Source of the DNA: Clostridiaceae bacterium
GTDB lineage: Bacteria > Bacillota > Clostridia > SK-Y3
Assembly (NCBI GenBank): GCA_012735465.1
Contig: JAAYHJ010000005.1
Coordinates: 1 to 45,544 of the forward strand
Length of the DNA stretch: 45,544 nucleotides
Direction of reading: 5' to 3'
The notes under the pieces were generated by a model. It saw only the letters and a program-made list of their open reading frames with translations, was not told the origin of the DNA and ran no database searches. The position numbers and the translations under genes were made by a program. Below are positions 22 to 9,885 of this stretch, piece by piece; the stretch's first letter is position 1, and the number at the start of each line of letters is the position of its first letter.

Positions 22-1002
22 TTATCGGCAAAGTGTCCGGATGCCTCCGGAATAGGTGTCCGGATGCCTTCGGGATAGATGTCCGGATGCCTCCGGATTA
101 GCCGTCCGGATAATCCGGAATACGCATAATATCCAAAACTTTGGTTTTTTATAGTTTAAAACATTTTTTATTCTCCCTTTTACATCCCCTTCACCAAAGG
201 CAAGAGGACTCCCATTTAAAATATGCCTCCCGGTGGCAAGGGACAATAAAGAGCTGGCATAAGGCTTTTTAATGTCTTCCTTCATTGCTTCCAATACTCT
301 TTCGTCACAGGATAACTCCATATCCGCGCTCATTAACATAAACGCAATCCAAACCAGGGGATTAAACCAGTGTATGGACACTATTAAGAAGGCTAATGCT
401 TTTATGACATGGTCTTTCCGCTTGATGTGGGTCTGTTCATGTATAAGAATATAATCTTGTTCCTCTTTGCTCAATCCAACCGGCAAATATATCCTGGGGT
501 TTATCAATCCAAACACAAAGGGTGTTTTTAAATTATTAGCTTCATAGATATTCTTTTTTATCAGTTTCGCACTATTAAGACTCTTTTTTAGTTTTAAAAC
601 AGACACTAAACTGTATATAAGTAATACAACTATTCCTAAAATCCAAATATATGCCCCTATTTCCACATAAATCTGCAGTGGATTTGCACTTGTTTCAACA
701 GTAGGTGCAGGAAGCAATTGATTTACAAATGAATCTACTGCTTCTATCCCGCTATTAATTTGCGGGCTTTGCTGATAAATAACATCACGAGGTATTGGTG
801 CCCCATTCGTATTGCGTGGCATAAGGCTAAATATGCTTTCAAAGGAAAAGGGAATTATAAGGCGAAATGCAACCACACTCCATAAGACATAGGAGATGAA
901 CTTAGGAGCTTTTTTGAGCAGCAGTCTTACTACCATCACAAAAAGGATTACATAACTTGCCGTTAGGCTCATATTTAAAACTGTAAGAAATTGCTCCCTC
1001 AT
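22..1002 (-). CDS. M56 family (BlaR1/MecR1-like) membrane metallopeptidase, C-terminally truncated
   Basis: This is a 326-residue integral-membrane zinc peptidase of the family that senses a signal and triggers loss of a BlaI-type repressor. Hydrophobic segments lie near residues 8-30, 37-55 and 112-137. The zinc motif HEQTH is at 188-192, and a downstream acidic segment (ADMELSCDE) supplies the likely third ligand. The family signature FGEGDVKGRIKNV follows, after which a normal protein would enter another membrane helix and an extracellular sensor domain. Here the frame runs into the 23-bp repeats and stops within about 35 residues. The gene sits directly after the BlaI-like repressor with a good Shine-Dalgarno sequence. 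The peptidase core is probably intact, but the sensor domain is missing. The ligand need not be a beta-lactam. Confidence 0.82.
   Translation of the reverse strand: MREQFLTVLNMSLTASYVILFVMVVRLLLKKAPKFISYVLWSVVAFRLIIPFSFESIFSLMPRNTNGAPIPRDVIYQQSPQINSGIEAVDSFVNQLLPAPTVETSANPLQIYVEIGAYIWILGIVVLLIYSLVSVLKLKKSLNSAKLIKKNIYEANNLKTPFVFGLINPRIYLPVGLSKEEQDYILIHEQTHIKRKDHVIKALAFLIVSIHWFNPLVWIAFMLMSADMELSCDERVLEAMKEDIKKPYASSLLSLATGRHILNGSPLAFGEGDVKGRIKNVLNYKKPKFWILCVFRIIRTANPEASGHLSRRHPDTYSGGIRTLCR
33..124. repeat. 23-bp tandem repeat, about four copies
   Basis: Three near-identical 23-bp units (33-55, 56-78, 79-101) and a degenerate fourth (102-124) follow each other without spacers. Each unit holds two TCCGGA-type palindromes separated by TGCC, so each could form a small hairpin. 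The array is more G+C-rich than its surroundings. It overlaps the 3' end of the M56 peptidase frame on the minus strand and supplies that protein's aberrant last residues. Confidence 0.85.
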
Positions 1003-1004
1003 TT

Positions 1005-1367
1005 CTACACCTCCTTATGCTCGTCAATCAGTCTTTTCAACTCTTCGGCCTGATGTCTACTTAATTTTCTACCGCTGATAAAAGCTGTCAAAAACTTCGG
1101 CAGGGATCCTCCAAAGGTATCTTCAACAAAACGTATGCTTTGCCTGGCATAGTACTGCTCCCTTGTGATTTTAGATGAAACCACAGCATCTTTATTTTGA
1201 AAAATGCCCTTTTCACATAACTTTTTTAGTACTGTATATGTTGTTGACTTTTTCCAATTCATCTCCTTTTCACAAAGCTTTACAAGGTCCCCGGAACCTA
1301 TTGGTTCATTCTCCCAAATTAATTGTGCAAACTTTTCTTCACTTTCCGTAAGCTTATACTCTTTCAT
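1005..1367 (-). CDS. BlaI/MecI/CopY family winged-helix repressor
   Basis: This 120-residue DNA-binding repressor pairs with the M56 peptidase immediately downstream. The N-terminal half is the typical winged helix (TESEEKFAQLIWENEP, then NWKKSTTYTVLKKLCEKG), and the C-terminal half is the helical dimerisation region. I chose the ATG at 1367 because it follows a G-rich ribosome-binding site (1375-1380) and starts at the conserved domain. A longer frame reaching 1532 would run through the operators and promoter and is rejected. Two 17-bp dyads upstream make autorepression likely. In the known systems the paired M56 protease relieves this repression when a signal is sensed. Confidence 0.9.
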   Translation of the reverse strand: MKEYKLTESEEKFAQLIWENEPIGSGDLVKLCEKEMNWKKSTTYTVLKKLCEKGIFQNKDAVVSSKITREQYYARQSIRFVEDTFGGSLPKFLTAFISGRKLSRHQAEELKRLIDEHKEV

Positions 1368-1382
1368 AATAAAACCCCCTTG

Positions 1383-1399
1383 GTCTATATGATATAGAC
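1383..1399. promoter_or_regulatory. BlaI-type operator 1 (perfect 17-bp dyad)
   Basis: GTCTATAT-G-ATATAGAC is a perfect palindrome around base 1391. It lies between the predicted transcription start and the ribosome-binding site of the blaI-like gene, where bound repressor would block elongation or initiation. It is paired with a second copy 29 bp away. Confidence 0.75.
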
Positions 1400-1410
1400 T
1401 ATGTATAATA

Positions 1411-1439
1411 AGTCTACAACATATAGACCAAGATGTCAA
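1411..1439 (-). promoter_or_regulatory. Promoter of the blaI-M56 operon
   Basis: On the minus strand a perfect -35 hexamer TTGACA (1434-1439) is followed after 17 bp by TAGACT (1411-1416). The spacer contains operator 2, and operator 1 lies downstream of the expected start site. Confidence 0.6.
1412..1428. promoter_or_regulatory. BlaI-type operator 2 (imperfect 17-bp dyad)
   Basis: GTCTACAACATATAGAC shares the outer GTCTA/TAGAC arms of operator 1 but is imperfect in the middle. It falls between the -35 and -10 hexamers of the repressor's promoter, so binding here would exclude RNA polymerase. Confidence 0.7.
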
Positions 1440-1450
1440 TAGGTATTTAT

Positions 1451-1491
1451 AAAAAAACCGCCAAAAATAGAACTTGTCACTTAATTGGCGG
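1451..1491 (-). terminator. Rho-independent terminator of the CRISPR effector operon
   Basis: Read on the minus strand, CCGCCAA (1491-1485) pairs with TTGGCGG (1464-1458) across a 20-nt loop and is followed by seven T residues. It lies about 90 nt after the last cas gene and before the blaI promoter, so it separates the two operons. Confidence 0.65.
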
Positions 1492-1578
1492 GTAGTTATC
1501 AAAGATTTTATCACTAGCCTGTTATGATACATTAACTACCTTTTCAATTAATTATTAACAGTTATAAATACTATATTT

Positions 1579-2466
1579 TTATATAAAGATTCTTTTAAAT
1601 TTCCCTTTTGACAACCTATACTCGGATACGACAGGATAATTACTATTTTCAACATAAATACTGCTTCCTATGTATATATAAAAAGATGCTTCTTTTATTT
1701 TGGGGATGTTGCTATTAAAATCAAATTCCGCTAAAGGCATAATACTTCCTTTGCATTTATTCATATCTACTGCAGATGTTATCTGTATGAAATTTCTTAA
1801 AATGTTATCTTTATCTTTCAAAAATAATTCTCCATTTTCATCTAAATTCCAATCTTCAAGTAATTGTCTGTCAACTTTTTTTATAGTTTTTAAAATCATC
1901 ATACCAAGCCCATATTTAATCTCCCCTCCGATATTAATTTCTAGCCTATTTTTATGCAAAAGATTAATAATATTTTCATTATTCTCTTCTATTCCTACAA
2001 GGCCAATCCATTTTAGATTTTCTTCTTTGCATATATTTTTTTCAGGCAATTCGTTTTTAGGTTTTGGGAGGAGTACATCAATTTCATGCAATGATTCGTC
2101 GACGGCCTCTTTCGATGGAGATCTTACCGCAGTTGATACTATGGTATCAATATATGCAAACCTAAACTCATCTTCTGTTATATTTTCACCTAAATGAAAC
2201 TTGCCGTTTTTATATAAAGGAGTCAAAACATTTTCTCCATCAAAGGAAGGGTAAAAACAGGTTATGGTTGAAAATACATCCTGGTTTTCATTTAAGTTTG
2301 CATTACTGTAGAGATTATAATATTTAGTTAAAGCCCCCCACATAGTTTGACCGGGAATAAATATCTCTGTTTCAGATATTACCCCATAATTAAGCTTTCC
2401 TATATGTATTGGCTGCAACTGCTCGAAGACAAGCTCATACCACCCTATTTTTGATCTTTTACTCAT
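1579..2466 (-). CDS. Type III CRISPR Cas5-group RAMP protein (Cmr3/Csx10-like position)
   Basis: This 295-residue protein is the last gene of the effector operon. The N-terminal section (LQPIHIGKLNYGVISETE, then IFIPGQTMWGALTKYYN) is the RAMP-type ferredoxin fold, in which a short strand-loop is followed by a substrate-entry helix. A glycine-rich element (GGEIKYGLGMMIL) lies near residue 180. By position and size it is most likely the Cas5-group subunit that caps the crRNA 5' end next to the large subunit. I chose ATG 2466 (MSKRSKIGW) because it follows GGGAGTAGG and lies 1 nt after the preceding stop; the longer frame to 2499 overlaps the upstream gene. RAMP membership is fairly secure; the exact subfamily is inferred from the operon. 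Confidence 0.72.
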   Translation of the reverse strand: MSKRSKIGWYELVFEQLQPIHIGKLNYGVISETEIFIPGQTMWGALTKYYNLYSNANLNENQDVFSTITCFYPSFDGENVLTPLYKNGKFHLGENITEDEFRFAYIDTIVSTAVRSPSKEAVDESLHEIDVLLPKPKNELPEKNICKEENLKWIGLVGIEENNENIINLLHKNRLEINIGGEIKYGLGMMILKTIKKVDRQLLEDWNLDENGELFLKDKDNILRNFIQITSAVDMNKCKGSIMPLAEFDFNSNIPKIKEASFYIYIGSSIYVENSNYPVVSEYRLSKGKFKRIFI

Positions 2467-2467
2467 C

Positions 2468-2815
2468 CTACTCCCTCGCTTTTGCATGATAACGAGCATA
2501 TATCAGTGTTTCTTCAAGTACTTCTTTAAAAAACAGGAGATCGTTTATATTGCTGCTTAAGTTGACAAAATAGTTCTCACAGTTATCATTTTCCAGTTTT
2601 GTATCAGTATATTTCATCAGTTCTTTTATTTCATCAATAAAAATATTATCATTTCCTTTTGATTTGACATAAACATAGTATGCATAAACTCCGTCATTGC
2701 TTAAAACTCCCAAAGCTTTATCAATTTCGCTTTTTTCAGATGACTTTATTTTCCCAGCAATCCGGCTTCCTATTTTACATATGACGCTATCCAGAAATTC
2801 GAGATTGTTATTCAT
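2468..2815 (-). CDS. Type III CRISPR small subunit (Cas11 group, Cmr5/Csm2-like)
   Basis: This 115-residue protein is predicted to be almost wholly alpha-helical and lies between the Cas7 and Cas5-group genes. That is the usual place and size of the small subunit that lines the target-RNA channel. No strong motif is visible and these subunits diverge quickly, so the call rests on length, composition and context. The ATG at 2815 is preferred over the TTG one codon earlier; it follows AAGGTGGTGG. The next gene begins 1 nt after this stop codon. Confidence 0.62.
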   Translation of the reverse strand: MNNNLEFLDSVICKIGSRIAGKIKSSEKSEIDKALGVLSNDGVYAYYVYVKSKGNDNIFIDEIKELMKYTDTKLENDNCENYFVNLSSNINDLLFFKEVLEETLIYARYHAKARE

Positions 2816-2845
2816 CAAACCACCACCTTACATAATTTTGGTATC

Positions 2846-3955
2846 CTAATTATTTAATAATACCTTAAGCCTTCCAAATCCTCTCGTTGTCATTCCACCA
2901 ATTCCAAGTGTCTCGTAAAAACCCGCTGTACTTTTAAGAGCAAGTGTCAATTGCTTAACTGTAGGTAAGTCATTTATTTTTGCATATGAGTCATTTATTT
3001 TTATTTCTATCCCCTTAAACATACTTTTATCGTATATTCTTACGGTTCCATAAAAAACAGTTGCCCTTGGTATAGCTTCGGAAGTGAACAGTGCGCCGTC
3101 TTTTGCGGCACCCGTAATTGGATCGATAGATACAGAAGTTCTTACTTCCAGACTTGAATTGATTATTTGTGAGATCAGCTTGTCCGGTACAATACAAATA
3201 TCTTTTTCTTTAATATTAAATAAACTATTGATTTGATTAAAATCAATATTCATTTTTGCCGTTTTATAGGGTAAGTTAAGCCACCCCAGATTAAGCCACC
3301 CTTCTTTTGGGCCATATGCTCCTTCATTCAATATAATCATGTTATCTTCGTCAAAACCATCTCCCTCCTGTAATAAGCCGGCCTCATTTAAAATTCTTCC
3401 GGAACTTATCCACTTTGTACCCCATCTAGTATATATGGGAAAAAGTGCGATGTTAAGATCACTGAAAGAAAGCATTCCTTGCCACGAATGGTCTTTTTTA
3501 GAAAAACCAAAGCCCTTGCATACTATACAATTCCCACAGTGTCCTGTATCCTTAGTACAGGCTTCACTATATTCATCCTGCGGAGATTCGTCCTGGCCTG
3601 CACATTTGATAGCAGCATATCTGTTTCCTTCATAATACACCCATTCTTTTATTTCAGAAAACCCCTGTTCATTACGATTATTAATATCGTCTATAAATAA
3701 ATCACTTATTTTATCAACATCTATTCTTTCGCTACGTTTTATCCTGTATTGATCTTTAAACAAACTTTGCAAATATAATGCTATGTAATATCTCCATGTA
3801 CCGGCAAAACTGGTTCCCGGAATTTTGGGAATTTTTGTTATAGGATCGCGTACTATAGTATTATCCACTCTACCTATAGAGTAACCGCCGGTTCCAATGT
3901 AAATAGGATCAGTGGCTATGGCCCAAACATTAAGATTTAAAGATATTTTACTCAT
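2846..3955 (-). CDS. Type III CRISPR Cas7-group backbone protein (Cmr4/Csm3-like)
   Basis: This 369-residue RAMP protein is expected to polymerise along the crRNA and cut target RNA at 6-nt steps. The start shows the RAMP fold (TDPIYIGTGGYSIGRVDNT, then RDPITKIPKIPGTSFAGTW). Asp31 in the VDNT segment sits where the catalytic Asp of Csm3 and Cmr4 lies, so slicing may be retained. A cysteine cluster (C133, C140, C143, C146) suggests a zinc-binding insertion. The C-terminal glycine-rich loop GIGGMTTRGFGRLKV is the usual RAMP signature. It has a good AGGAGGT ribosome-binding site and sits 54 nt downstream of csx11. Csm3-like and Cmr4-like origins cannot be separated by eye. Confidence 0.8.
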   Translation of the reverse strand: MSKISLNLNVWAIATDPIYIGTGGYSIGRVDNTIVRDPITKIPKIPGTSFAGTWRYYIALYLQSLFKDQYRIKRSERIDVDKISDLFIDDINNRNEQGFSEIKEWVYYEGNRYAAIKCAGQDESPQDEYSEACTKDTGHCGNCIVCKGFGFSKKDHSWQGMLSFSDLNIALFPIYTRWGTKWISSGRILNEAGLLQEGDGFDEDNMIILNEGAYGPKEGWLNLGWLNLPYKTAKMNIDFNQINSLFNIKEKDICIVPDKLISQIINSSLEVRTSVSIDPITGAAKDGALFTSEAIPRATVFYGTVRIYDKSMFKGIEIKINDSYAKINDLPTVKQLTLALKSTAGFYETLGIGGMTTRGFGRLKVLLNN

Positions 3956-4009: not shown

Positions 4010-7000
4010 TTACTCTTTCAAAGCTTTATGCCAGAATTCAAAAACATCGAAAAACAATCTTGCTATCCATCTGATTTCATCATTGTTCTTCTCAAGTAGC
4101 TCATTTATGCTTGAAATCCCTAATACTTTACAAATGTTATCTTTTAATCTCCCATCTTCTACTGCGTTTGTTAATTTACAAGTATTTAAGAGAAGCGAAA
4201 CAAGGAACAATTTAAAATTATCAACATTCCTATCATTATTTTCTATATCCCATTCTTCATATTTTCTGTATAGCATGATGATAAATTTATGAAATTGCGA
4301 AACAGAAATTTTATTAAATACTTCATATAGTTCCATAATTTTTTCTGCTTCTTCCATTGTATATGGACGATTATTCTTTAGCGGTAGTACTCGCTTGCCA
4401 TGTTGGTAAAAGATTTCGTTTCTTCGGGTATTTGTATCTAAAAACTCAAAATCAAATGTATTGGGATAATATATCATACTTTCATCATCAGCAGCACAAT
4501 CTAAAGGTTTCAATTGCCTTAAACCATCGGCATCCGGATATAAATAAAAACTGTAACGCTCAGCACTGTCTGTTGTTTCCTCTGACATTTCATAAATCAT
4601 GTAGTATTTGCCTGCTTCGTCAATATCTTTATTATTTTTAGATTCAGATTTGCATTCATCCACCTTAAGTTTTAATTCGCTAACTTTGATCTCTCTCTCC
4701 AAATCTTCTCTTTTTACATCATCACGCCTTATCTTTCTTAAAGCTTTTATACCTACGTATAAGGGTTTTTTATAATCTTGAATTATGACACCTGTATGGA
4801 GATGCAGTTTCCCAAATACTAACTTGAAGTGGCTTTTATATAGACTATTAATTTTTCTTATAAGATTTGAAACATATCCTGCAGGAATAGCAAATTCCCA
4901 ACTTACAGGTGTTGATTCAATTATAGAAAAATATGGCTTATAATATTGATATACAGCATTATTTTTTAACAATCTGATTGTGCCAGTATTTACCGGACCA
5001 GATACCCCGTAAGGTTTTAGAATAAATTCGTCTTTATCCTCAGGCACCGGCGATATCATGTAAACTGTCCCTTTGTTTGCCCAGAACAAAATCTCCCCGT
5101 CTTGATATTCGCCATCACTACATTCTATATCCTTCCAAAGTAAACGCCTGCATCTTTCATTTTCTATTCCCGCATACTCTATTATCTTGTTTTCGATCTC
5201 TTCGAAAAAATCTTTCGTTGTTTCCCAAATTCTGCGCAGTCTTGCAGGAGAAGGATTTTTACGAATTATAAACTGTAGCAGCAATATTGAAAAAAGCTCT
5301 ATTTCATCTTTTGACCATTTATCCCATAATATTTCCTGCTTATCCCAGTTAATAAATTCCCCCAAATTTCTGTTTTTTACGAAATCTTCCCATTCATTTC
5401 CCGTTATCGAGCCAAAAAATACCTGCCTGATCCAGTCATTAAAAGTTTCATTACATTTTTTGCATCCCTTGTATGATTCGTCGGTTGCTAAATAAGTTAT
5501 AAAGAAATTACCTCTTTGAAGATCTGTTATTCTCTCAATAAGCTTATCAATACAAGATACATATTTATTGTAAATTTCTTCTTCAAAAAAGCCCTTATAT
5601 TTTTGGAAATTATCTTTTAAAATTTTTGCATTTTTACCCAATGAATTTAGGTCTCTATAAAACAATTCAATAATTTCATTAAAATTATTATTATATTTTA
5701 TTCCTTCAATCTTTTCATTTAATTTAATTGAGTCGCTAAAAAGCTTATTTCGTAAATTATTAACTAATATTTCGATTTCATTTGCCTCTTTTTTTATATC
5801 CCTGCTTCTGCCTTTAACATTTTTAGCAAAAGAACTTTTATCATATTGCGGAATTGTGTGTAATATTCTGATTGATTCTTCTTCCATCTCGTTTAACCAA
5901 CTTTTATCTTCCAAGAAAACAGTTTCTTTGGAAAAAAATGTCCTAAAAAACATCTTTATTTCTTCAAGCTTTTGGCAATAATCTACTTGGCGTATAAGGA
6001 GTCTATTTAACATATTGCCGTTTAACCATTCTTTGAGCTCAAATTTCATTGTAACAAGAGCAATTCTGCCGTTTTTGTCCTGCAGTTCAGATGTCCAAAT
6101 CGTTTCACCTTCAGCAGTCTTCAACCATTCATTAATCCGGTTTTTAGTCTTTTCCTCATAGCATTTGTCGCAAATACGCATATCTTCAATTTTTCTTTCT
6201 TTTCTGTCGGAAATAGAAAACGCTCTTATGCAACACACGGGACAAATCTTTGATTTATCTGTACTATCAAAATAAAAACTACTTTGCGGATAATCAGGCT
6301 GTAGAAAATTATCCTTAGCTTCTTCTAAAAGAAATGTTAGATTCATAAGGCCACGGGAAGGTTTCGTTAAAAAGATGGCAGGATAAAATTCCCCTACGTT
6401 CTCTTGTCCATGTACTTCTCCGCATATATTACAACATGATACTTGAGCCGTTTTGAATATATTTAAAATTTTGTTTTTCACCTCTGTGAGGTCAGAATGA
6501 AGTTTTGTCAATTTGCTCTTATCATCTTCACCCAGATCTTCGCCTACCAGGAAATAAATTCCTGTTTCATCTCGATAAATTTCATTTCCCAAAGAATAAC
6601 AAGTTTCTACAAGATACTTAATTTTTTCGTCTATAGTGTTAGCGGTTTCTCGATACCACTTAATCTGTGCAGGTTTAAAACCTCTCTCTGCCAAGCCCAG
6701 TTTATCGTACTGTATGCCCATGATTCTCCATTTTATATTTGCAGGTGATTCAAAATAAGTTTTTATTCTTTCTTGCTCTGCCATATCGGAAATAACAAGA
6801 TACATATTAGCTAAAACCGCTTTGAACATGGAAGCAACCATATATACCTGATCCCAAAGAGTTACATCATTTATAGAAACACGGTTGTCACTTAATAAGG
6901 AAGAGTACCATGGTTTCATATTATCAAATATCCATTTTCTTATGCTTTTCCAATTAGGAGTCTTATTATAATAGTCATTATTGTCCAGAAACACATGCAT

Positions 7001-7501
7001 TTTATTCCAGAAATATTTCCTCCTGTTATCCATATCACTTATCAAAACTTCTTTCTTGAATGTTCCAAATGCATTGGCTATAAAAAGCTCTGTCATTTCC
7101 TTTTCTGGCGTTCCTTTGTCTATACCGGAATTTATGTTTTCGCAGCCTCGAAAAAAAACATTTTTAGATAGACTTTCTGAGCTTTTTCTCGCTTTCATAA
7201 TTTCGATCAATTCAACACTATTTTTATCTTTTAAATACTGGGATGAAAAATAAACTTTAATATCGCTGAAAAATTTTTCTAATTTAGGTGATATATTTTT
7301 TAATTCTTTATAAAAATATCCACCATCATAATATTCATCATACTCTGAGAAATAACTTTGGACTGTATAGGAACCATTTTTAAATTTTTCTCTCCAATTA
7401 TTAATTCCCGCATGGGTCTTTCCCATATTGAAAAGCAGCGCCCCAATCTCTGCTTTCAGTATGTCAGAATTGTGAGCCTTTAAACTTTTCAAGTCTAGCA
7501 T
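4010..7501 (-). CDS. csx11: Csx11-type Cas10 large subunit (type III-C), HD and cyclase motifs lost
   Basis: This 1163-residue protein is the large subunit of the interference complex. The N-terminus resembles the start of a Cas10 HD domain, but the expected HD pair reads F24-N25 within GALLFNMGKTH. Residues 308-326 look like a remnant palm strand. Cysteine pairs C357/C360, C420/C423 and C444/C447 form a likely zinc-binding region, as in Cas10. The strand where Cas10 palms carry a DxD-type metal site may correspond to RIALVTMKFELKEWL (479-493), without the acidic pair. I found no GGDD or close variant anywhere. The Csx11 family (large, RAMP-associated, Cas10-derived) fits best and defines subtype III-C. 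It overlaps the upstream RAMP gene by 7 nt. Both DNA cleavage and cyclic oligoadenylate synthesis are probably absent. Confidence 0.82.
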   Translation of the reverse strand: MLDLKSLKAHNSDILKAEIGALLFNMGKTHAGINNWREKFKNGSYTVQSYFSEYDEYYDGGYFYKELKNISPKLEKFFSDIKVYFSSQYLKDKNSVELIEIMKARKSSESLSKNVFFRGCENINSGIDKGTPEKEMTELFIANAFGTFKKEVLISDMDNRRKYFWNKMHVFLDNNDYYNKTPNWKSIRKWIFDNMKPWYSSLLSDNRVSINDVTLWDQVYMVASMFKAVLANMYLVISDMAEQERIKTYFESPANIKWRIMGIQYDKLGLAERGFKPAQIKWYRETANTIDEKIKYLVETCYSLGNEIYRDETGIYFLVGEDLGEDDKSKLTKLHSDLTEVKNKILNIFKTAQVSCCNICGEVHGQENVGEFYPAIFLTKPSRGLMNLTFLLEEAKDNFLQPDYPQSSFYFDSTDKSKICPVCCIRAFSISDRKERKIEDMRICDKCYEEKTKNRINEWLKTAEGETIWTSELQDKNGRIALVTMKFELKEWLNGNMLNRLLIRQVDYCQKLEEIKMFFRTFFSKETVFLEDKSWLNEMEEESIRILHTIPQYDKSSFAKNVKGRSRDIKKEANEIEILVNNLRNKLFSDSIKLNEKIEGIKYNNNFNEIIELFYRDLNSLGKNAKILKDNFQKYKGFFEEEIYNKYVSCIDKLIERITDLQRGNFFITYLATDESYKGCKKCNETFNDWIRQVFFGSITGNEWEDFVKNRNLGEFINWDKQEILWDKWSKDEIELFSILLLQFIIRKNPSPARLRRIWETTKDFFEEIENKIIEYAGIENERCRRLLWKDIECSDGEYQDGEILFWANKGTVYMISPVPEDKDEFILKPYGVSGPVNTGTIRLLKNNAVYQYYKPYFSIIESTPVSWEFAIPAGYVSNLIRKINSLYKSHFKLVFGKLHLHTGVIIQDYKKPLYVGIKALRKIRRDDVKREDLEREIKVSELKLKVDECKSESKNNKDIDEAGKYYMIYEMSEETTDSAERYSFYLYPDADGLRQLKPLDCAADDESMIYYPNTFDFEFLDTNTRRNEIFYQHGKRVLPLKNNRPYTMEEAEKIMELYEVFNKISVSQFHKFIIMLYRKYEEWDIENNDRNVDNFKLFLVSLLLNTCKLTNAVEDGRLKDNICKVLGISSINELLEKNNDEIRWIARLFFDVFEFWHKALKE

Positions 7502-8217
7502 TTATACCACCCTTCAACACTAAAATCCTTGTCGGTAATAAAATATTTCTTATCCATCAATTCAAACCTACCCCATCCTAGCTTGATTTTTGCGCCTATA
7601 CCTTCTTCTTCCGTTTTTTCTATCGCTCTGCATAAAAAAGAAATATCTTCTTTGACTTGGTCTTTTAATATCTGAGATTCAGACAAAACCGCATCATGGG
7701 GAATATATATTATCTGTAGTTTTCCTCTCGCACCTTCGGGAACAATCTCATAATATATTGGATTAATTCCTGCTCTTCTCTTCCTGTCATGAGGATTTAT
7801 TATTTCGTAAGATACCTTATCAAAAAAAGTAGGATAAAAGATAGCTCTGCCCTTGTGGGGTTGTAGGAAGGGAAATAGAGTTTTGTTTTTTACATTTGTA
7901 ATAGTTAAGTTCTGGGATAGATTCTTTAAAAATTCCAAAGGATCATTTTTTATAACGCTTATATCATTTTTATCCAGGCTAAGTCCTAATTCAAATAGAG
8001 CAAAATAAATTGCAGCTTTCCTTATCTCTTCCCGATTATCCTCTTTTAGAGAGTCTATCAACTGCCGATATTCGCAAGAACCTAATCCCCAAATTCGTGC
8101 AAATTGCGGGAAGTATTCTTTATTTTCTCTAACCAGCTTTCTGGCAGATGCCGCCAGAGCGCCCTTCCAACTACTTCCTCTGATCATAGGAACTTTAAAA
8201 ACATGCTCTTTTAGCAC
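7495..8217 (-). CDS. Type III CRISPR Cas7-group RAMP protein, C-terminal part (Cmr6-like position)
   Basis: This frame opens at a GTG (8217) and encodes 240 residues with clear RAMP features: VFKVPMIRGSSWKGALAAS near the start and a C-terminal glycine-rich loop (GIGAKIKLGWGRFEL). Convincing family-like sequence continues upstream in the same frame without a start codon, back to about 8330 (ALAADVILKSPYFSRDDN, then HFYLVDNP). The 8319-8708 frame ends exactly where this extension begins, so the two pieces are best read as one gene of about 404 codons broken by a -1 frame change. The stop overlaps the csx11 start by 7 nt, which suggests translational coupling. The GTG has no convincing ribosome-binding site, so separate initiation there is unlikely. 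Confidence 0.72.
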   Translation of the reverse strand: MLKEHVFKVPMIRGSSWKGALAASARKLVRENKEYFPQFARIWGLGSCEYRQLIDSLKEDNREEIRKAAIYFALFELGLSLDKNDISVIKNDPLEFLKNLSQNLTITNVKNKTLFPFLQPHKGRAIFYPTFFDKVSYEIINPHDRKRRAGINPIYYEIVPEGARGKLQIIYIPHDAVLSESQILKDQVKEDISFLCRAIEKTEEEGIGAKIKLGWGRFELMDKKYFITDKDFSVEGWYKC

Positions 8218-8318
8218 AGGATTATCTACAAGATAAAAATGATTATCATCTCGACTGAAATATGGAGATTTAAGTATAACATCTGCCGCAAGTGCAAAAG
8301 AACAAGGTGGTAGATTTT

Positions 8319-8708
8319 TTATACATTTTTTACGTCTTCAGTATTTTGAAATATACCGGCAAAATTTTCAGCTAAAAGCGTATCTGCTTTAAATTCTAAC
8401 TCTTTATTTTGAAACTTAAATTTTTTAAGCCATAAAAACGGAAACTCAGCACTTTTCCAATTTCTATATGGACTTTTATTTCGATCGAATTTTTTATCAA
8501 CAAAATTAAACCTTTCGTAAAATTCATTTTCCATTAGTTCAGGGTCAGATATCTTTCTCTTATCAGAGCTTTTATTTTTCTTTTCTCGTTCATAAATTTT
8601 GCAAAAGTTAAAGTAATCCTTCAAATTAAATTTGTTTTTTATTTCTTCTGATTTAATATTTCCTGACAGAACATATTCATAAGAAAAATTAGAATTCATT
8701 TTTCCCAT
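8319..8708 (-). CDS. N-terminal part of the frame-split RAMP gene
   Basis: This 129-residue frame starts at ATG 8708, inside the end of the cmr1-like gene, with AAGGAG just upstream. It ends at a TAA (8319-8321) two codons after an A AAA AAT heptamer (8331 down to 8325). Alone it resembles no complete family. Its last residues (AENFAGIFQNTEDVK) join smoothly, after a -1 slip, to the RAMP sequence read in the next frame (KCIKNLPPCSFALAADV). It is therefore the N-terminal third of the same protein. Whether the split is programmed frameshifting, a disabling mutation or an error in the A6 run cannot be decided from the sequence. Confidence 0.68.
   Translation of the reverse strand: MGKMNSNFSYEYVLSGNIKSEEIKNKFNLKDYFNFCKIYEREKKNKSSDKRKISDPELMENEFYERFNFVDKKFDRNKSPYRNWKSAEFPFLWLKKFKFQNKELEFKADTLLAENFAGIFQNTEDVKNV
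8325..8331 (-). promoter_or_regulatory. Candidate -1 frameshift heptamer A AAA AAT
   Basis: In the zero frame of the upstream piece the codons are GTA AAA AAT GTA TAA. The heptamer fits the X XXY YYZ slippery pattern, and the zero-frame stop follows two codons later. A -1 slip opens a continuous frame into the downstream RAMP sequence. I see no clear stimulatory hairpin or upstream Shine-Dalgarno enhancer. Confidence 0.4.
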
Positions 8709-9819
8709 TGTCTCCTTCTCCTATATTAAGTATATCAATAATCGAAATTAATCCATATTCCCACTTTTTTTCTTCGTTATTCGCTTCACGCACCCAAGGC
8801 AAAACTTTGCTCCCGTGAACTGGCAAACTTTTTGAACCAAAAACTTGATAATATTTTTCATATTTTCCCATGTTATATCTGTGCCTTCGAATGTAAATTT
8901 TCTCTTTTTTCAATTCTTTTAAAAGGTAATTCACAGTTTCACCATGAAAATCTTTAGAATCATTTCTAATAAACAGTCTCAATTTATTATTTATTTTCTT
9001 ATTTTTTAACAGATCTATCTCTCTATCAACATTTTCAACCAAATCATCAATGCTTACAGGATTGTTGGAAAATTCAGCATAGTCTGAAAATTTATTATAT
9101 TCTACTTCAGCTTTATCAAAGCTTACTTTTACTCTGCCGTACCCTAAATTCCAAGCTCCACCTATAAATCCATAACATTCAATAAATTTAAGCAAAGGGA
9201 ATAAAATATGTTGCGCCGTATTTTTATCTGTCGAAAAAATAACGTCAAAATAACCATAAAAGTAATCTCGAATATAATTGTCAGAACGCTTAGAATTGCT
9301 TTGGTACAAATGTTCATTATTTCTTAAGATTAAATTTTGTGGATTAGTATTAGATGTGAATATCTCGTACGATTGGTTTCTTTGTATTTTAGAAATTTCT
9401 ACTTTCTTAATCTTAATTAAACCCTGCCAACCCGTACAACCGAAAACTCTTGCAGGCAATGGAATCTTCATTTTCTCTAAAAGCTCAATTGTCAAATCGT
9501 CAGTCGAGCAGTCTTTTTCAGATGTTTCAATCAGCTTTATTAATTCATCACGAAATTCTTTTTGTTTTAAATCTGCCTTTAGGATAACATTATATTTATG
9601 CTTATGAATTTTATCAGCTTTACCATATCTATCATGAGTATTTATTGTATAATCATACGGCTTAGTTATTCCACTTAAATAACATATGATTTCAAACCAA
9701 AATCTTAAACTACCAATTATAGAGGAAGTTTTAAATGGAGCCTTGTTTTCAAGCCAAGCATCACCGAACCTGAGAGGAGTAACTGTTTCAAAATGTACTT
9801 TATATTCCTGGGGTTTCAT
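8689..9819 (-). CDS. Type III CRISPR RAMP protein Cmr1-like (first gene of effector operon)
   Basis: This 376-residue RAMP-superfamily protein belongs to the Cas7 group. The N-terminal motif (HFETVTPLRFGD, then FKTSSIIGSLRFWFE) is characteristic of Cmr1, and the glycine-rich loop GGAWNLGYGRVKV lies in the middle. In type III-B, Cmr1 sits at the 3' end of the crRNA and helps position the target. I chose ATG 9819, preceded at 8 nt by GGAGG (9828-9832). The alternative ATG at 9858 overlaps the -10 hexamer of the predicted promoter and is rejected. The gene leads the six-gene operon, and its end overlaps the next frame by 20 nt. Confidence 0.8.
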   Translation of the reverse strand: MKPQEYKVHFETVTPLRFGDAWLENKAPFKTSSIIGSLRFWFEIICYLSGITKPYDYTINTHDRYGKADKIHKHKYNVILKADLKQKEFRDELIKLIETSEKDCSTDDLTIELLEKMKIPLPARVFGCTGWQGLIKIKKVEISKIQRNQSYEIFTSNTNPQNLILRNNEHLYQSNSKRSDNYIRDYFYGYFDVIFSTDKNTAQHILFPLLKFIECYGFIGGAWNLGYGRVKVSFDKAEVEYNKFSDYAEFSNNPVSIDDLVENVDREIDLLKNKKINNKLRLFIRNDSKDFHGETVNYLLKELKKEKIYIRRHRYNMGKYEKYYQVFGSKSLPVHGSKVLPWVREANNEEKKWEYGLISIIDILNIGEGDNGKNEF

Positions 9820-9856
9820 TGTAATAACCTCCGAAATATTGAGTATGTTTTTCTTC

Positions 9857-9885
9857 ATATTACCATAATTTCATCATTATTTCAA
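9857..9885 (-). promoter_or_regulatory. Promoter of the CRISPR effector operon
   Basis: The minus strand reads TTGAAA (9885-9880), a 17-bp spacer and TAATAT (9862-9857). Transcription would start near 9850, about 30 nt before the preferred ATG of the cmr1-like gene. Confidence 0.6.

What the first reader, a model, noticed from the sequence alone, without database searches (positions are those of the whole stretch)
4010..7501. Cas10-like subunit with both enzymatic centres apparently lost
The HD motif is replaced by F24-N25 inside an otherwise recognisable GALLxxMGK segment, and no GGDD-type motif occurs in 1163 residues. Cyclase loss is known for III-C; simultaneous loss of the HD pair would leave no DNA nuclease and no second messenger. 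The large conserved size then implies a different output, such as recruiting a partner or pure target-RNA slicing.
Basis: partly seen in the sequence, partly recalled or inferred. Interest (0 to 1): 0.75.

Follow-up and report, generated by a model that had tools for sequence, protein, structure and literature searches.

The report
CRISPR Cas10 with both enzymes dead
The gene encodes the large subunit of a type III-C CRISPR complex whose DNA-cutting and alarm-signal active sites have both been replaced, leaving target-RNA cutting by a partner subunit as the only visible activity; this is real and shared by many bacteria, but dead cyclases and frequent loss of the HD motif in this subtype are already in print.

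Summary
Confirmed, with corrections. The 1163-aa ORF lies on the minus strand (7501 to 4010) and is Csx11, the Cas10 of subtype III-C (TIGR02682, 500 bits), in a cmr1-cmr6-csx11-cmr4-cmr5-cmr3 cassette. Its AlphaFold model matches only Cas10 chains in the PDB at E <= 0.001. All four HD metal-ligand positions are replaced, not just the HD pair: H24F, D25N, D121E, H218Q. The GGDD site reads T864-P-V-S. In 78 relatives no GGDD stands at that column, and only 4 keep the full H-D-D-H set. The window belongs to one clade (25 aligned rows, eight or more phyla, one archaeon) in which E121 and Q218 never vary. Aquificota, sampled without that bias, give 13 of 14 with E-Q. No ancillary effector gene is shared, while the Cmr4 slicing Asp is kept in 78 of 78. 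The genome holds a I-B system with Cas3, arrays and Cas6, and no cyclase-type Cas10 was found. Best reading: Csx11 is a non-catalytic scaffold and the complex is an RNA slicer fed with crRNA in trans. Cyclase loss in III-C, and HD in only half of III-C, are published (PMC11229360).

The parts
4010..7501 (-). [quoted passage not shown]
   Evidence: TIGR02682 500 bits (cut-off 249), PADLOC Cas10c 1.6e-118; Foldseek to Csm1/Cmr2 chains
6794..7501 (-). N-terminal HD-like domain (residues 1-236), metal ligands lost
   Evidence: motif alignment to HD-intact Csx11 and canonical Cas10; helical domain model pLDDT 87; fold match of this domain alone is weak
7427..7432 (-). F24-N25 in place of the H-D pair
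7139..7141 (-). E121 in place of the third ligand (Asp of the 'AD' motif)
6848..6850 (-). Q218 in place of the fourth ligand (His of the 'DH' motif)
6161..6244 (-). four-cysteine zinc finger C420/C423/C444/C447, retained
   Evidence: nearly invariant in alignment A3
5432..6001 (-). variable-length helical insert (residues 501-690)
   Evidence: length and entropy table, helices in model
4901..4912 (-). T864-P-V-S in place of the GGDD cyclase motif
2846..3955 (-). cmr4 (Cas7 backbone, putative target-RNA slicer), 369 aa
   Evidence: TIGR02580 90.9 bits, PADLOC Cmr4; PDB Cmr4 hits
3863..3865 (-). Cmr4 D31, aligned with P. furiosus Cmr4 D26; Asp in 78 of 78 relatives
2468..2818 (-). cmr5 (small subunit), 116 aa
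   Evidence: PADLOC Cmr5 3.9e-32
1579..2499 (-). cmr3, 306 aa
   Evidence: PADLOC Cmr3 1.1e-65
7495..8217 (-). cmr6, 3' part of the gene
   Evidence: PADLOC Cmr6 6.4e-61
8319..8708 (-). cmr6, 5' part (129-aa ORF), separated from the rest by an apparent frameshift near 8325
   Evidence: homology to the N-terminus of intact Cmr6 in relatives
8689..9858 (-). cmr1, 389 aa
   Evidence: PADLOC Cmr1 1.2e-64

Best explanation
The protein is Csx11, the Cas10-type large subunit of a type III-C Cmr-like complex. It keeps the Cas10 fold, the zinc finger and the second-shell residues of the HD pocket. It has lost every HD metal ligand and the cyclase motif, so it should neither cut DNA nor make a nucleotide messenger. 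It therefore acts as a non-catalytic scaffold that, by analogy with other type III complexes, sits with Cmr3 at the crRNA 5' end. The complex takes crRNAs made by the genome's Cas6 from its I-B-type arrays, binds complementary transcripts, and cuts them with the Cmr4 backbone Asp (D31). DNA destruction is left to the type I-B system and its Cas3 in the same cell. Shown here: family, cassette, loss of both sites, clade-wide conservation, Cmr4 Asp, presence of I-B genes, arrays and Cas6. Inferred: scaffolding, crRNA sharing, RNA slicing, division of labour.
For: Csx11/Cas10c family scores. AlphaFold model pLDDT 84.8, pTM 0.86; all 28 PDB matches at E <= 0.001 are Csm1 or Cmr2 chains. Ligand quartet F-N-E-Q against H-D-D-H in three HD-intact Csx11 and a Csx11-like Cas10, with the same motifs in canonical Cas10s. 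No accepted cyclase motif at the GGDD column in 78 sequences. E-Q rows form one clade with full support in two trees. Purifying selection: window against the paralogue, dN 0.18, dS 0.84. Conserved six-gene order, 55 loci exact, no shared ancillary gene. Cmr4 Asp 78 of 78. Own genome: arrays, cas1/2/4/6, cas3/5/7, no other cyclase-type Cas10 palm.
Against: No biochemistry; slicing and crRNA source are inferred. The window's cmr6 is split by an apparent frameshift, so the complex may be impaired in this strain. Cas3 co-occurrence is not specific to the HD-less clade: 23 of 26 genomes against 7 of 9 with the HD pair. 17 of the 26 clade genomes do carry another Cas10 with a palm2 domain, so signalling in trans is possible elsewhere.
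Confidence: 0.66

Rival explanations
1. The former HD pocket has been repurposed: F24-N25, E121, Q218 and the retained second shell bind something (target RNA flank, DNA, a nucleotide, or a partner protein) and so gate or direct the complex.
For: Residues 13-33 are the most conserved window of the whole protein in the 16 FN members, and 211-231 are close behind. E121, N124, S125, K129, R207, N211 and Q218 are invariant in 25 of 25, although the metal ligands are gone. Aquificota sampled by family HMM also give 13 of 14 E-Q.
Against: AL, IL, FL and other sublineages have dropped F24-N25 while staying in the clade, so that pair is dispensable. Residues 211-231 were part of the search pattern, which inflates their conservation. 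No partner gene is conserved. Fold packing alone could explain the constraint.
Confidence: 0.18
2. An unusual metal site with E121, D128, D217, H30 or neighbours still supports DNase activity.
For: Acidic residues remain near the old site and H30 is kept in 16 of 16 FN members.
Against: None of the four canonical ligands is kept, the second ligand is the non-acidic N25, and H30 is lost in the AL, IL and FL sublineages.
Confidence: 0.06
3. The complex binds but does not need to cut: it silences by binding its target.
For: Both Cas10 activities are lost, and binding-only interference is known or predicted for some type IV and V systems (PMC12669027).
Against: The Cmr4 catalytic Asp is conserved without exception, unlike III-G and III-H, where it is not conserved and HD is kept (PMC12669027).
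Confidence: 0.07
4. The locus is decaying and the active sites eroded for lack of selection.
For: cmr6 frameshift, orphan second csx11 next to an IS200/IS605 element.
Against: The replaced residues are fixed across eight or more phyla, the ORF is intact, dN/dS is 0.21, and the cassette order is kept.
Confidence: 0.03

Closest known systems
Type III-C Cas10 / Csx11 (TIGR02682, PADLOC Cas10c)
   Same: Family, cassette, cyclase motif lost, no cyclic-oligoadenylate effectors
   Different: All four HD ligands replaced; the published count is only that half of III-C loci have a recognisable HD domain (PMC11229360)
HD-intact Csx11 (L037, L039, L041; Aquificota L178)
   Same: Same family, same operon partners, GGDD lost
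   Different: Keeps H-D-D-H and could cut DNA
[quoted passage not shown]
   Same: Cyclase inactivated, no signalling effectors
   Different: Those keep HD and lose the Cas7 Asp, so are predicted to cut DNA (PMC12669027); this is the reverse
Subtype III-I (and III-E)
   Same: Cas7 Asp kept, predicted RNA cleavage without Cas10 catalysis (PMC12669027 for III-I)
   Different: Cas7 domains fused into one protein; III-I Cas10 lacks the polymerase domain, whereas Csx11 here is full length
Type III-B Cmr2 (e.g. 6s8e_K, Cmr-beta)
   Same: Overall fold (Foldseek E 2.1e-5, TM 0.38/0.43)
   Different: About 10% identity; the window protein lacks the active-site residues

Membership tests
Cas10 superfamily | Cas10 fold: HD-like domain, two Palm domains, zinc finger, helical C-terminus | tested here: met
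   AlphaFold model and Foldseek matches to Csm1/Cmr2; cysteines conserved
Csx11 / Cas10c (type III-C) | Score above the curated TIGR02682 cut-off | tested here: met
   500 bits against 249
Type III-C locus | Cas10c with Cmr1, Cmr3, Cmr4, Cmr5, Cmr6 | tested here: met
   cmr6 is present but split by an apparent frameshift
Type III-C locus | Cyclase motif inactivated | tested here: met
   TPVS at the GGDD position
Cas10 HD nuclease | Metal ligands H-D-D-H | tested here: not met
   F-N-E-Q
Cas10 HD nuclease | ssDNase activity | not testable with these tools
   needs biochemistry
Cas10 cyclase | GGDD or accepted variant in Palm2 | tested here: not met
   none at the site; literal GEDD at 324-327 is in a Palm1 loop
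Target-RNA slicing type III complex | Catalytic Asp in the Cas7/Cmr4 backbone | tested here: met
   D31, aligned with Pfu D26; 78 of 78
Target-RNA slicing type III complex | Cleavage of target RNA | not testable with these tools
   needs biochemistry

The most novel reading that the evidence does not exclude
A widespread III-C clade has turned the Cas10 HD nuclease into a pseudo-active site in which the metal ligands are exchanged for a fixed E-Q pair that is under strong constraint. The complex has no Cas10 catalysis at all and works by guided RNA slicing, possibly gated through this pocket. III-C Csx11 as a whole shows several alternative ligand quartets (HDDH, HDHW, HMHQ, FNEQ), so loss or conversion of the HD site happened repeatedly and in a coordinated way.
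Probability: 0.25. Interest if true: 0.65.

Novelty: new member of a known kind. Interest (0 to 1): 0.42.

Why it matters
Type III CRISPR is usually explained by Cas10 output (DNA cutting or messenger synthesis). A large natural group with neither, and with no replacement gene, makes it testable whether guided RNA slicing alone protects a cell. It also warns that calling Cas10 nucleases by the HD pair alone may overcount: 6 of 9 HD-pair Csx11 in the Bacillota sample have the other two ligands replaced (by H and W).

Tried and rejected
Sequence search of the single protein and of a 33-row profile against the PDB found no relative; only fold comparison did. A shared ancillary effector was sought by clustering 725 neighbouring ORFs: only Cas1, Cas2, Cas3, Cas6 and unrelated genes recur. 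BlaI and M56 peptidase genes just downstream were considered as an output and rejected: not found at any relative's locus. The 129-aa ORF was considered as a new subunit and rejected: it is the N-terminus of cmr6. The long insert as a new effector domain: rejected, variable and dispensable. Cas3 presence as an explanation specific to HD loss: no contrast with HD-pair genomes. Viral contigs: no relative. Array spacers of contig C82 against phages: no match. Viral fold library: nothing. N-terminal domain alone against PDB folds: best matches are Csm1 chains but E about 0.5, not significant.

Full report
What is there. The finding's coordinates hold one ORF on the minus strand, 7501 to 4010, 1163 aa, no internal stop. 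It scores 500 bits against TIGR02682 (Csx11; cut-off 249) and 1.6e-118 against PADLOC Cas10c. It lies in a minus-strand cassette cmr1 (9858-8689), cmr6 (8708-7495, split), csx11, cmr4 (3955-2846), cmr5 (2818-2468), cmr3 (2499-1579). AlphaFold with 41 sequences gives pLDDT 84.8 and pTM 0.86. All 28 PDB matches at E <= 0.001 are Cas10 chains from Csm or Cmr complexes. So it is a bona fide Cas10 by fold, and a III-C one by family.

The HD site. In HD-intact Csx11 (L037, L039, L041) and in canonical Cas10s from genomes that also carry Csx11, the site is made by 'LLHDxGK', the Asp of 'CD/AD..S..DK/R', and the His of 'ND[VI][TS]L[WF]DH'. The window protein has F24-N25, E121 and Q218 at these places: four of four ligands replaced. 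Over 78 aligned Csx11 the quartets are HMHQ 36, FNEQ 16, HDHW 6, ALEQ 5, HDDH 4, HNHI/V 3, ILEQ 2, FLEQ 2, two singles (HLHY, HQHQ) and two truncated rows. The genome-contig scan used a pattern that contains Q218, so these numbers are not frequencies. Two samples taken by family HMM are free of that: Bacillota (the window's phylum), 24 sequences, HD pair in 9 and full quartet in 3; Aquificota, 14 sequences with an N-terminus, 13 with E-Q and 1 HDDH.

The cyclase site. The GGDD column reads TPVS here and x-P-x-x in almost all of the family; none of 78 has an accepted motif there. The divergent Csx11-like L059 has LTDE. A literal GEDD at 324-327 of the window protein is in a Palm1 loop that varies among relatives.

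Evolution. Two trees, the first built without the HD-pair columns and the second without all four ligand columns, put all E-Q rows in one clade with full support (26 rows including one N-terminally truncated; 17 of 38 rows). It spans Bacillota, Aquificota, Campylobacterota, Cloacimonadota, Fidelibacterota, WOR-3, Patescibacteria-type lineages and a Methanocaldococcus MAG. The constraint on the dead site is high: residues 13-33 are the most conserved window of the protein in the FN members, and E121, N124, S125, K129, R207, N211 and Q218 are invariant in 25 of 25. F24-N25 itself is dispensable, as sublineages carry AL, IL, FL and others. The window gene and its paralogue on contig C87 (71% identical) show dN 0.18 and dS 0.84, so this is not decay.

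What remains catalytic. Cmr4 D31 aligns with P. furiosus Cmr4 D26 (that D26 is the slicing residue is established knowledge), and all 78 full-length Cmr4 proteins have Asp there. The cassette order is exact in 55 loci, and clustering of neighbours found no ancillary gene shared by the clade. The source genome has arrays of a 30-nt repeat on three contigs, cas2-cas1-cas4-cas6 beside one of them, and I-B cas7-cas5-cas3 on another contig, with an unassigned 579-aa ORF at the cas8 position. No other Cas10 palm2 domain was found there. In a WOR-3 genome (L072) the III-C cassette sits inside a I-B operon between cas8b and cas7. A type I Cas3 is found in 23 of 26 clade genomes, but also in 7 of 9 genomes with HD-pair Csx11, so this is context, not proof of a division of labour.

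Mechanism. Most likely Csx11 is a scaffold, and the complex slices guide-matched transcripts through Cmr4 while I-B handles DNA; confidence 0.66. The main rival is a repurposed pocket (0.18). Slicing, crRNA sharing and scaffolding are inferred, not shown.

Against the literature. Makarova et al. 2011 (PMC3150331) already call Csx11 an inactivated Cas10. Hoikkala et al. 2024 (PMC11229360) report that III-C lacks cyclase sites and that half have a recognisable HD. Makarova et al. [quoted passage not shown] The present group is the reverse of III-G/H. I found no paper on the four-ligand pattern or on the conserved E-Q pocket, but the library lacks many subscription papers and preprints. Verdict: real, well supported, a new member of a known kind with an under-described twist; interest 0.42.

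Noticed in passing
window 8217-8380, minus strand: cmr6 is split by an apparent frameshift at an A-run (GTAAAAAATG); relatives have one ORF. Assembly error, real mutation or slippage was not resolved.
   Followed up: partly
L006:8420-11545 (same genome, contig C87): A second csx11 (1041 aa, also FN-E-Q, 71% identical) stands alone downstream of apparent anaerobic ribonucleotide reductase genes (named by eye, not tested) and beside an IS200/IS605-like element at the contig end; the only cmr4 found in the genome is the window's.
   Followed up: partly
L048, L049, L050, L051, L055, L058: Csx11 with the HD pair kept but the other two ligands replaced by H and W (HDHW); counting HD motifs alone may overcall active nucleases.
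   Followed up: partly
L046, L089 group and main HM clade: The same quartet HMHQ occurs in three groups that are not sisters in the trees; convergence, ancestral state or tree error is unexplained.
   Followed up: no
L059:5843-9571: Divergent Csx11-like Cas10 with a complete H-D-D-H set and LTDE at the GGDD column, possibly close to an intermediate.
   Followed up: no
L072:4246-20044: III-C cassette embedded in a type I-B operon between cas8b and cas7, in a candidate WOR-3 genome; L078 is similar.
   Followed up: partly
window 22-1532, minus strand: BlaI-type repressor and M56 (BlaR1-like) peptidase follow cmr3 by 47 bp; not found at relatives' loci. The M56 gene's 3' end holds 23-nt tandem repeats.
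   Followed up: partly
L070, L076, L083, L166: csx11 is broken by apparent frameshifts or stops in several clade members.
   Followed up: no
L081:14755-16467: Predicted AAA-ATPase with PD-(D/E)xK nuclease next to one HD-less III-C cassette (Caldicoprobacter); not conserved in the clade.
   Followed up: no
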